A stretch of DNA of 64,000 nt from Actinoplanes lobatus (GTDB lineage Bacteria; Actinomycetota; Actinomycetes; Mycobacteriales; Micromonosporaceae). Numbering within the stretch: the first letter of the stretch is position 1; every line of letters starts with the position of its first letter. The stretch spans positions 3,229,001-3,293,000 of the forward strand of contig NZ_JACHNC010000001.1 in assembly GCF_014205215.1 (NCBI RefSeq), written 5' to 3'. Below, in pieces: positions 32,556-53,172 of the stretch. The notes below the pieces were generated by a model. The model did not search any database. It saw only the letters and a list, made by a program, of their open reading frames with translations, and had not been told where the DNA came from. Made by a program: the position numbers and the translations under genes.

Positions 32556-33191
32556 TCAGGGTGTGGGGGAGACGGCGAGGCGGATTCCGATCGTGATCAG
32601 GACGGCGCCGGTGACGGCGTCCAGGGTGCGGCGCACCACCGGCCGGGACAGCATCCGGCGCAGGGCCGCGACCAGGTTCGCCACCACCACGAACCAGGCG
32701 ACCGTCACCGCGACCGCCACCACCGACAGCAGCAGCACGTCCGCGGCGGCACCGTCCACCGGCGCGAACTGCGGCAGCACCGCCACGAAGAACACGCCAC
32801 ACTTGGGATTGAGCACATTGGTCACCAGGCCGTCCCGGAACGACGCCCACAACCGCTTCTCCGGACGCCCACCCGCTGCCGGCTCGATCTCACCGCCGCC
32901 ACGCCGGGCCGCGAGCAGAGCGCTCACCCCCAGCCAGAGCAGGTAAGCCGCACCGGCCAGCTTCACGACGGTGAACGCCACCGCCGACGCGGCCAGAAGC
33001 GCGGCCACCCCCACCGCGGCGGCCACCGACCAGACGAACACCCCCGCGGCGACTCCAGCGGCCGCGGCCATCCCATGCCATCGCCCGGCCGCCACCGAAC
33101 GCCGCACCACCACCGCGAAGTCCGGCCCCGGCGACACCGCCGCCAGCCCGATCACACCCGCGAACGCCAGTGCCTGCCCGAGACCAGTCAT
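32556..33191 (-). CDS. LysE/RhtB family exporter
   Basis: 211 residues from the ATG at 33191, chosen because GGAGG lies 8 nt upstream; the frame extends to 33227. Six hydrophobic helices are visible. The LysE signature AAVSPGPDFAVVVRRSVAAGRWHGMAAA is at the N-terminus and the second conserved block GLVTNVLNPKCGVFFVAVLPQF in the middle. Members export amino acids (lysine, threonine, homoserine) or related small molecules; the substrate is unknown. Its stop codon abuts that of the convergent WD40-like gene. The hairpin array at 33270-33480 lies upstream. Confidence 0.9.
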   Translation of the reverse strand: MTGLGQALAFAGVIGLAAVSPGPDFAVVVRRSVAAGRWHGMAAAAGVAAGVFVWSVAAAVGVAALLAASAVAFTVVKLAGAAYLLWLGVSALLAARRGGGEIEPAAGGRPEKRLWASFRDGLVTNVLNPKCGVFFVAVLPQFAPVDGAAADVLLLSVVAVAVTVAWFVVVANLVAALRRMLSRPVVRRTLDAVTGAVLITIGIRLAVSPTP

Positions 33192-33269
33192 CCCCCCATC
33201 CTCCTGCGCCTGATTGCTCCGCGGCAATCGTCCAAGATTGGCTGAAGGTGGCTCTGCGGCCTCTCCTGG

Positions 33270-33315
33270 ATCTTGGACCTTCTCTCACCGTCCGCGGTGG
33301 CCGGTCGTCCAAGAT
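33270..33315 (+). repeat. 46-nt hairpin repeat, copy A
   Basis: Outer stem ATCTTGGAC (33270-33278) with GTCCAAGAT (33307-33315), exactly 28 nt between. The inner stem TCACCG/CGGTGG closes a TCCG tetraloop. Confidence 0.8.
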
Positions 33316-33352
33316 CGGCGGGCATCTGGGCGGCGCGTCTCCCCCCTTTCGG

Positions 33353-33398
33353 ACCTTGGACGTTTGCCTACCGCGAACGGTGGTCGGTCGTCCAAGGT
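33353..33398 (+). repeat. 46-nt hairpin repeat, copy B
   Basis: Outer stem ACCTTGGAC (33353-33361) with GTCCAAGGT (33390-33398): relative to copies A and C, a T-to-C change on one arm is matched by A-to-G on the other. 28 nt between; inner stem CTACCG/CGGTGG with a CGAA tetraloop. Confidence 0.8.
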
Positions 33399-33434
33399 CA
33401 GCCTGGGGGTGGGCGGTGCGGCCTCCCTGTCCAG

Positions 33435-33480
33435 ATCTTGGACGTTTTCCTGCCGTGAGTGGTGGCCGGTCGTCCAAGAT
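33435..33480 (+). repeat. 46-nt hairpin repeat, copy C
   Basis: Outer stem ATCTTGGAC (33435-33443) with GTCCAAGAT (33472-33480), 28 nt between. The inner stem CTGCCG/TGGTGG pairs with G-U wobbles only if read as plus-strand RNA; the tetraloop is TGAG. Confidence 0.8.
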
Positions 33481-41824: not shown

Positions 41825-41870
41825 ATCTTGATCGATTTGCCACCGGCTCGGGTGGCAAATCGTTCAAGAT
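41825..41870 (+). repeat. 46-nt hairpin repeat, diverged copy D
   Basis: ATCTTGA and CGATTTGCCACC pair with GGTGGCAAATCG and TCAAGAT, with one T-T mismatch and a 6-nt loop. The length (46 nt) and about two thirds of the aligned bases agree with copy C at 33435. The hairpin extends to 41822-41872 and may also serve as a terminator. Confidence 0.6.
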
Positions 41871-53028: not shown

Positions 53029-53096
53029 AGGCCCCGAACGGCGAACAGCCGGGTCCGGGCGGGCGGAATGGCCCGCGCCACTGACCGAACAGAAAC

Positions 53097-53133
53097 GCGA
53101 TGCCCGGCCGGACGGAATCCGGCCGGGCATCGC
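53097..53133. terminator. Strong 16-bp hairpin
   Basis: GCGATGCCCGGCCGGA (53097-53112) pairs perfectly with TCCGGCCGGGCATCGC (53118-53133). It lies between the small ORF and the fusion gene and probably ends transcription from both sides. Confidence 0.8.
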
Positions 53134-53172
53134 ATTTGCTCACGGCGTACGAAATGGGTGGTTCGAAAAGGG

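What the first reader, a model, noticed from the sequence alone, without database searches (positions are those of the whole stretch)
33270..33480. Tandem array of three 46-nt hairpins with compensatory base changes
Three elements at 33270, 33353 and 33435 share an outer 9-bp stem with exactly 28 nt between the arms. In the middle copy T-to-C on the left arm is matched by A-to-G on the right, so pairing is kept. Each loop holds an inner 6-bp stem and a tetraloop (TCCG, CGAA, TGAG); in the third copy the inner stem is kept only through G-U pairs, and only if read as plus-strand RNA. This is a signature of selection on RNA structure. No known REP or riboswitch family was recognised. The array lies between the GH3 and LysE genes.
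Basis: seen in the sequence. Interest (0 to 1): 0.75.

Follow-up and report, generated by a model that had tools for sequence, protein, structure and literature searches.

The report
Phased REP-like palindrome array in Actinoplanes
The three hairpins are copies of a 46-letter DNA palindrome scattered widely through this soil bacterium's genome, often between genes that end facing each other; it resembles the known REP repeats and looks more like a DNA element than an RNA switch.

Summary
In detail: three 46-nt imperfect palindromes, a decayed fourth, and a variant at 41825-41870. They are not a local RNA element but members of a dispersed REP-like family: 61 exact-arm copies in this Actinoplanes genome, 174 by profile in the stretches fetched. 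The RNA reading is not supported here: arms do not covary (z -3.8), the double change at pair 2/45 is at chance, and G.U against A.C shows no strand preference (77:69; 0:10 for this array on the strand of its flanking genes). The array is absent from the GH3-LysE spacer of A. flavus and ten other syntenic relatives. Elements favour convergent gene pairs (24 of 43 loci). Array spacings cluster near 82, 93, 104, 114 and 125 nt (step 10.57), one helical turn apart, which hints at protein bound on double-stranded DNA; the control for this test is imperfect. In two genomes of another genus the same outer arms cap covarying hairpins beside stop codons. Best reading: a tag-less variant of REP/BIME repeats without a RAYT partner. 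Function is inferred, not shown.

The parts
33270..33315 (.). 46-nt element, copy 1
33353..33398 (.). 46-nt element, copy 2 (T2C and A45G)
33435..33480 (.). 46-nt element, copy 3
33316..33352 (.). 37-nt spacer (start-to-start 83)
33399..33434 (.). 36-nt spacer (start-to-start 82)
33212..33238 (.). degenerate fourth copy: right arm CGTCCAAGAT at 33229-33238 preceded by GATTGC..GCAATC, upstream of the LysE start
   Evidence: sequence; direct-repeat family D2
41825..41870 (.). second locus of the family in the window: MITE-type variant ATCTTGATCG..CGTTCAAGAT between convergent genes
32556..33191 (-). LysE-type translocator gene (flank)
   Evidence: Pfam PF01810
33547..36366 (-). glycoside hydrolase family 3 gene (flank)
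   Evidence: Pfam PF00933 and PF01915

Best explanation
The array is three full copies (plus a decayed one) of a dispersed REP/BIME-like palindromic DNA repeat of Actinoplanes. SHOWN by sequence: high copy number, 46-nt geometry in every copy listed for this genome, enrichment between convergent genes, absence from this site in syntenic relatives, arrays whose copy number and period differ between orthologous loci, spacings that cluster near multiples of one helical turn, and a MITE lying in the loop of some copies. INFERRED: the repeat acts on double-stranded (or cruciform) DNA. A sequence-specific protein, not identified, would recognise the conserved ATCTTGGACG and CCACCG half-sites and, in arrays, sit on one face of the helix, marking the ends of transcription units, for example as a supercoil, topoisomerase or transcription boundary. 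At this locus the array is most simply a gain in this lineage, with no shown role for GH3 or LysE.
For: 61 exact-arm copies genome-wide; the pattern allowed 20-40 nt between arms and all 50 of the 61 that were listed have 28. 174 elements in 59 arrays or singletons in fetched stretches. Non-MITE loci with both flanks called: 24 convergent, 16 co-directional, 3 divergent of 43, against 48 convergent of 239 intergenic gaps over 60 nt in the same loci. No arm covariation, and polarity (polar model 91 log units better than symmetric). Array spacings, one per spacer cluster: n=56, max R 0.556, jitter p 0.00005-0.0001; for spacings up to 130 nt n=44, step 10.57 nt, R 0.657; without collapsing across arrays, own genome p 0.0006 (n=48) and A. 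flavus p 0.003 (n=27). Similar spacers in A. flavus L227 differ by an extra 21-nt unit, two turns (read). A. flavus has 29 nt between GH3 stop and LysE start where this genome has 355 (counted).
Against: No binding protein, transcript or phenotype is known. The jitter test also gave p 0.0004-0.003 for 62 tandem-repeat rows without elements (probably overlapping rows near 70 nt; p 0.25-0.29 for the 23 rows of 76 nt or more), so its p values are approximate. A looser spacer clustering left 21 clusters and p 0.04-0.05. Some arrays break the phase (133, 151). In genomes G053 and G022 the arms covary strongly and sit at gene 3' ends, which fits an RNA or hairpin role there. Own arrays are not closer to 3' ends than random intergenic placements (17 of 48 against 231 of 561 within 60 nt), and A. 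flavus arrays are farther (3 of 21 against 43 of 93).
Confidence: 0.55

Rival explanations
1. RNA-level 3'-end hairpin: the element is transcribed from either flank and acts as a bidirectional terminator or mRNA-stabilising stem-loop.
For: Convergent placement. In G053, 19 of 20 fetched elements lie within 16 nt of a called gene 3' end, four of these by overlap, and in G022 10 of 10 within 14 nt, against 25% per gap for random placement in G053. Strong stem covariation in these two genomes (z 11.1 and 7.8).
Against: I saw no consistent U-run after the printed elements (by eye; no terminator scan was run).
Confidence: 0.25
2. Purely selfish miniature mobile repeat, tolerated in convergent gaps because these hold no promoters; arrays are neutral tandem duplications.
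For: Patchy distribution (6 of 60 genus genomes by model R1), presence at this locus in the own genome only, copy number and period differing at orthologous loci (11 of 20 fetched A. flavus loci match an own-genome element locus).
Against: Shared loci between two species argue for retention rather than constant movement. Phased spacings are not expected of neutral duplications. No partner transposase was identified: family PF01797 (Y1/RAYT) has no match in G043, G055 and G022, which hold 114, 56 and 41 copies. I read no clear target duplication at this locus.
Confidence: 0.3
3. Local regulatory RNA or operator that controls LysE or GH3 specifically (riboswitch, attenuator or operator).
For: It lies in the 355-nt GH3-LysE gap, upstream of the LysE start.
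Against: Same element at many unrelated loci; absent from the GH3-LysE spacer of A. flavus and of ten other relatives; no Rfam family.
Confidence: 0.04

Closest known systems
REP / BIME repeats (GTAG and CGTC families of Di Nocera et al. 2013, PMC3733652: abstract, word finds and sections 6, 14, 15 read)
   Same: Palindrome in many copies, intergenic, mainly between convergent and co-directional genes, grouped copies, different sequence types per genome. In G053 and G022 the elements lie within 16 nt of 3' ends, as that paper reports (<20 bp) for conv-REPs; a second palindrome family of G053 overlaps stop codons, as it reports for GTAG REPs.
   Different: 46 nt (pairing often extends further) instead of 20-40; no unpaired GTAG or CGTC tag; arrays mostly in one orientation rather than head-to-head dimers; spacing near helical turns; no RAYT in three copy-rich genomes. 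The paper's main text does not contain 'actinobacteria', 'streptomyces' or 'amycolatopsis'.
REPINs with RAYT (Y1 HUH) transposases (definition recalled)
   Same: Inverted arms and dispersed copies.
   Different: Family PF01797 not found in G043, G055 and G022; no tag.
REP-targeting insertion sequences (IS1397, ISPpu9/10 and others; Tobes and Pareja 2006, PMC1525189: abstract and passages read)
   Same: A MITE-like repeat of about 260 nt with ends GAGTCTTCTTCTTGG lies in the loop of elements (L034, L040); A. flavus has the uninterrupted element at the site of L034.
   Different: Non-autonomous, carries a variant of the same palindrome, and no autonomous copy with these ends was seen at up to 2 mismatches.
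Intrinsic transcription terminators (features recalled)
   Same: Hairpins near ends of genes, symmetric between convergent genes.
   Different: No U-run noticed by eye; conserved sequence in the outer arms; no covariation in the own genome.

Membership tests
REP (general definition) | short palindromic repeat in many copies per genome | tested here: met
   61 exact-arm copies, 174 by profile in fetched stretches
REP (general definition) | extragenic, mostly convergent or co-directional gaps | tested here: met
   40 of 43 classified non-MITE loci convergent or co-directional; 1 of 48 loci called inside an ORF, 4 with one flank uncalled (own simple gene caller)
REP (general definition) | length 20-40 bp | tested here: not met
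   46 nt in the 50 copies listed; flanking C-G-C often extends the pairing
GTAG- or CGTC-tagged REP super-families | unpaired GTAG or CGTC at one end of an 8-9-bp stem with CCA tail (CGTC families) | tested here: not met
   CGTC of the element is paired inside the outer stem; flanks are symmetric C-G-C on both sides
RAYT-associated REPIN | Y1 tyrosine transposase (PF01797) in the genome as partner | tested here: not met
   0 matches in G043, G055, G022; 6 matches including fragments in the own genome, 1 in G053
BIME protein binding | bound by gyrase, IHF or DNA polymerase I | not testable with these tools
   no binding data for Actinoplanes
Structured RNA family | covariation above shuffled control in the own genome | tested here: not met
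Structured RNA family | match to a curated family | tested here: not met
   Rfam 15 gathering threshold: only three tRNAs in the window; none in four array-bearing loci
Intrinsic terminator | U-run directly after the stem on the transcribed strand | tested here: inconclusive
   flanks printed show no consistent T-run by eye; no RNA data and no terminator scan run

The most novel reading that the evidence does not exclude
A so far undescribed chromosome-marking system of this actinomycete family: an unknown DNA-binding protein recognises 46-bp polar palindromes, and arrays are kept in helical register so that bound copies line up on one face of the DNA, forming boundaries at the ends of convergent genes. 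In another genus the same outer arms cap covarying hairpins that work at gene 3' ends.
Probability: 0.25. Interest if true: 0.75.

Novelty: new variant of a known kind. Interest (0 to 1): 0.45.

Why it matters
What REP-like repeats do is an old open question. Of the two REP surveys opened here, one does not mention actinobacteria in its main text and the other, in the passages seen, names three Actinomycetota species, none of this genus. Array spacings clustered at about 10.6-nt steps give a direct, testable hint that copies act together on double-stranded DNA. A shared outer arm and a mostly 46-nt length with changing inner sequence between genera, and covariation in one genus but not in Actinoplanes, give a natural comparison of DNA-level and RNA-level roles. 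It also shows that three copies with one double substitution are too few to infer RNA selection: with 90 copies the signal vanishes.

Tried and rejected
RNA regulatory family: Rfam at gathering threshold gave only tRNAs in the window and nothing in four loci. RAYT partner: not supported. Phylum survey with exact arms: only the own genome of 396; it held only two genomes of the own family, so it says little about relatives. Autonomous relative of the MITE: 46 end-like matches at up to 2 mismatches, ten facing pairs about 245 nt apart, one 421 nt apart, no facing pair from 0.6 to 5 kb. First spacer clustering merged nearly everything (21 clusters, p 0.04-0.05) and was replaced by stricter ones (56, 63 and 64 clusters, each p 0.0002, the smallest reachable). 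Phasing could not be tested in G505, G509 or G497: few spacings (72, 73, 73, 136, 600 nt) in the loci fetched. De novo palindromes: in G053 14 of 40 were 46-50 nt long, in G464 no peak, and other palindrome families in both. Paper searches: searches found no paper; some searches gave listings in which I saw no title or abstract start on this repeat; only PMC3733652, PMC12306157 (abstract and one passage), PMC1525189 and PMC13155455 (passages) were opened.

Dropped before counts: copies with MITE-type arms and hits under 30 bits; loci with an uncalled flank in the orientation counts; the weak pair L220-L047 (78.5%) in the synteny count. The MITE filter went by arm letters: at least one copy with MITE flanks (C1:4476397, L020, co-directional) stayed. 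My notebook says 10 of 20 shared loci and 12 syntenic relatives; recounted these are 11 of 20 and 11.

Full report
OBSERVATION. They form a 79-nt direct repeat spaced 83 and 82 nt. A decayed right half lies at 33212-33238. Rfam finds only three tRNAs in the window.

A GENOME-WIDE FAMILY. The pattern ATCTTGGAC-N20..40-GTCCAAGAT occurs 61 times in the own 10.4-Mb genome, reversed-pattern control 0; 50 of the 61 are listed and all 50 have exactly 28 nt between the arms. A covariance model returned 150 matches on both strands, the number scored, so the list is saturated. A profile scan of the stretches fetched found 174 elements in 59 arrays or singletons. The consensus is ATCTTGGACG, about five variable letters, CCACCG, four-letter loop, CGGTGG, five letters, CGTCCAAGAT, often extended by C-G-C outward on both sides.

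WHO HAS IT. Family sample: 10 of 61 genomes, own included, match the exact-arm pattern; in two of these (G008, G031) the matches are 54 nt long. Genus sample with the model: 6 of 60. Phylum sample: 1 of 396, the own genome. The scan that names organisms gave A. flavus NEAU-H7 and A. utahensis. In four other genomes of the family, a fixed 46-nt pattern with up to two arm mismatches gives 45 (G053), 56 (G055), 114 (G043) and 41 (G022) copies, with different inner sequences in each genome. The length is common but not absolute: of exact-arm matches with a free gap of 20-40, 23 of 25 in G053 and 10 of 13 in G022 recur in the fixed 46-nt lists; G043 shows one 45-nt and G054 one 41-nt form.

COVARIATION. 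For each element I counted Watson-Crick matches between its two arms and compared with arms drawn from other elements. Own genome: 15.83 against 16.45 per element, z -3.8 (90 elements, 29 clusters). G043 z -0.4 (50 of 114 copies typed), G055 z 2.7 (30 of 56), G053 z 11.1 (45 of 45), G022 z 7.8 (25 of 41). The G043 and G055 copies used are exact in the outer arms, so only their inner pairs count. In the own genome the two arms differ in a conserved way around positions 11-15, so the element has polarity (polar against symmetric model, 91 log units). The tool count on 42 copies agrees: covariation score 0.073 against 0.083 shuffled, 463 of 500 shuffles at least as high.

STRAND. In arrays between co-directional genes, mismatches on the transcribed strand are G.U 77 and A.C 69 (own, 17 arrays) and 28 and 31 (A. 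flavus, 9 arrays). In the window's array they are 0 and 10, because both flanking genes are on the minus strand.

PLACE. With a simple gene caller of my own, 24 of 43 non-MITE loci with two called flanks lie between convergent genes, against 48 of 239 gaps of more than 60 nt in the same loci, a background that still contains the element gaps. In A. flavus it is 10 of 19 against 11 of 49. Own arrays are not nearer to gene 3' ends than random intergenic placements (17 of 48 against 231 of 561 within 60 nt), and A. flavus arrays are farther (3 of 21 against 43 of 93). In G053 19 of 20 fetched elements are within 16 nt of a called 3' end, four by overlap, and in G022 10 of 10 within 14 nt, against 25% per gap at random in G053 (5% length-weighted). 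G043 is mixed: 7 convergent, 9 co-directional, 4 divergent of 20; G055 4, 5 and 1 of 10.

THIS LOCUS. Fourteen LysE loci, own included, were examined. GH3 is next to LysE in the own genome, A. flavus and ten others; in L132 and L135 no GH3 was seen in the fetched stretch. No element scored above 5 bits in any of the 13 other loci. A. flavus has 29 nt between the genes where this genome has 355 (counted). The simplest reading is a gain in this lineage.

DYNAMICS. Eleven of 20 fetched A. flavus loci match an own-genome element locus by flanking DNA, but copy number and period differ, for example 93/92/230/93/92 against 124/124/124. A MITE of about 260 nt with ends GAGTCTTCTTCTTGG lies in the loop of elements at L034 and L040. 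At the L034 site A. flavus keeps the uninterrupted element CACCGCTGGGGGTGG, and CTGG flanks the insert on both sides in this genome, a 4-bp duplication of the tetraloop by my reading.

PHASING. Start-to-start spacings crowd at 81-84, 90-95, 102-106, 109-116 and 120-126; of 99 spacings (one per value and array, under 260 nt) none lies from 85 to 89 or from 96 to 101. One spacing per spacer cluster (n=56) gives R 0.556; those up to 130 nt (n=44) give a step of 10.57, offset 82.5, rms 1.7, R 0.657. The control is imperfect: 62 tandem-repeat rows without elements, from the same loci and G464, also gave p 0.0004-0.003 as a whole set, but p 0.25-0.29 for the 23 rows of 76 nt or more. In one A. flavus array, two similar spacers carry an extra 21-nt unit. 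That about 10.5 bp is one turn of B-DNA is general knowledge.

CONCLUSION. The finding is an ordinary piece of a less ordinary family: REP-like DNA repeats of Actinoplanes with polar 46-nt units, phased arrays, and no tag or RAYT partner found. A DNA-level role is the best-supported reading for this genome; an RNA or hairpin role is favoured for the genus of G053 and G022.

Noticed in passing
window 41825-41870; L034, L035, L036, L037, L038, L039, L040, L041, L042: A MITE-like repeat of about 260 nt with inverted ends GAGTCTTCTTCTTGG carries a variant of the palindrome and, at L034 and L040, sits in the loop of a 46-nt element; ten facing end pairs about 245 nt apart genome-wide.
   Followed up: partly
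L102-L121 (G464): Another Actinoplanes genome without the 46-nt family has its own long palindromes, GGCTGGC..CACGGGTGTCTC..GAGACACCCGTG..GCCAGCC, about 50-63 nt.
   Followed up: no
L082-L101 (G053): A second palindrome family of 50 nt with TGATC..GATCA ends; at one convergent gap the ends overlap both called stop codons.
   Followed up: no
L007 (G008), L009 (G031): 54-nt palindromes with the same ATCTTGGAC arms in other genera.
   Followed up: no
L192 (G000 C1 near 490000): An element array with one spacer made of many GGCGCGGAA units.
   Followed up: no
window 53093-53137: A 45-nt near-perfect hairpin AAACGCGATGCCCGGCCGG..CCGGCCGGGCATCGCATTT with A/T-rich ends, terminator-like.
   Followed up: no
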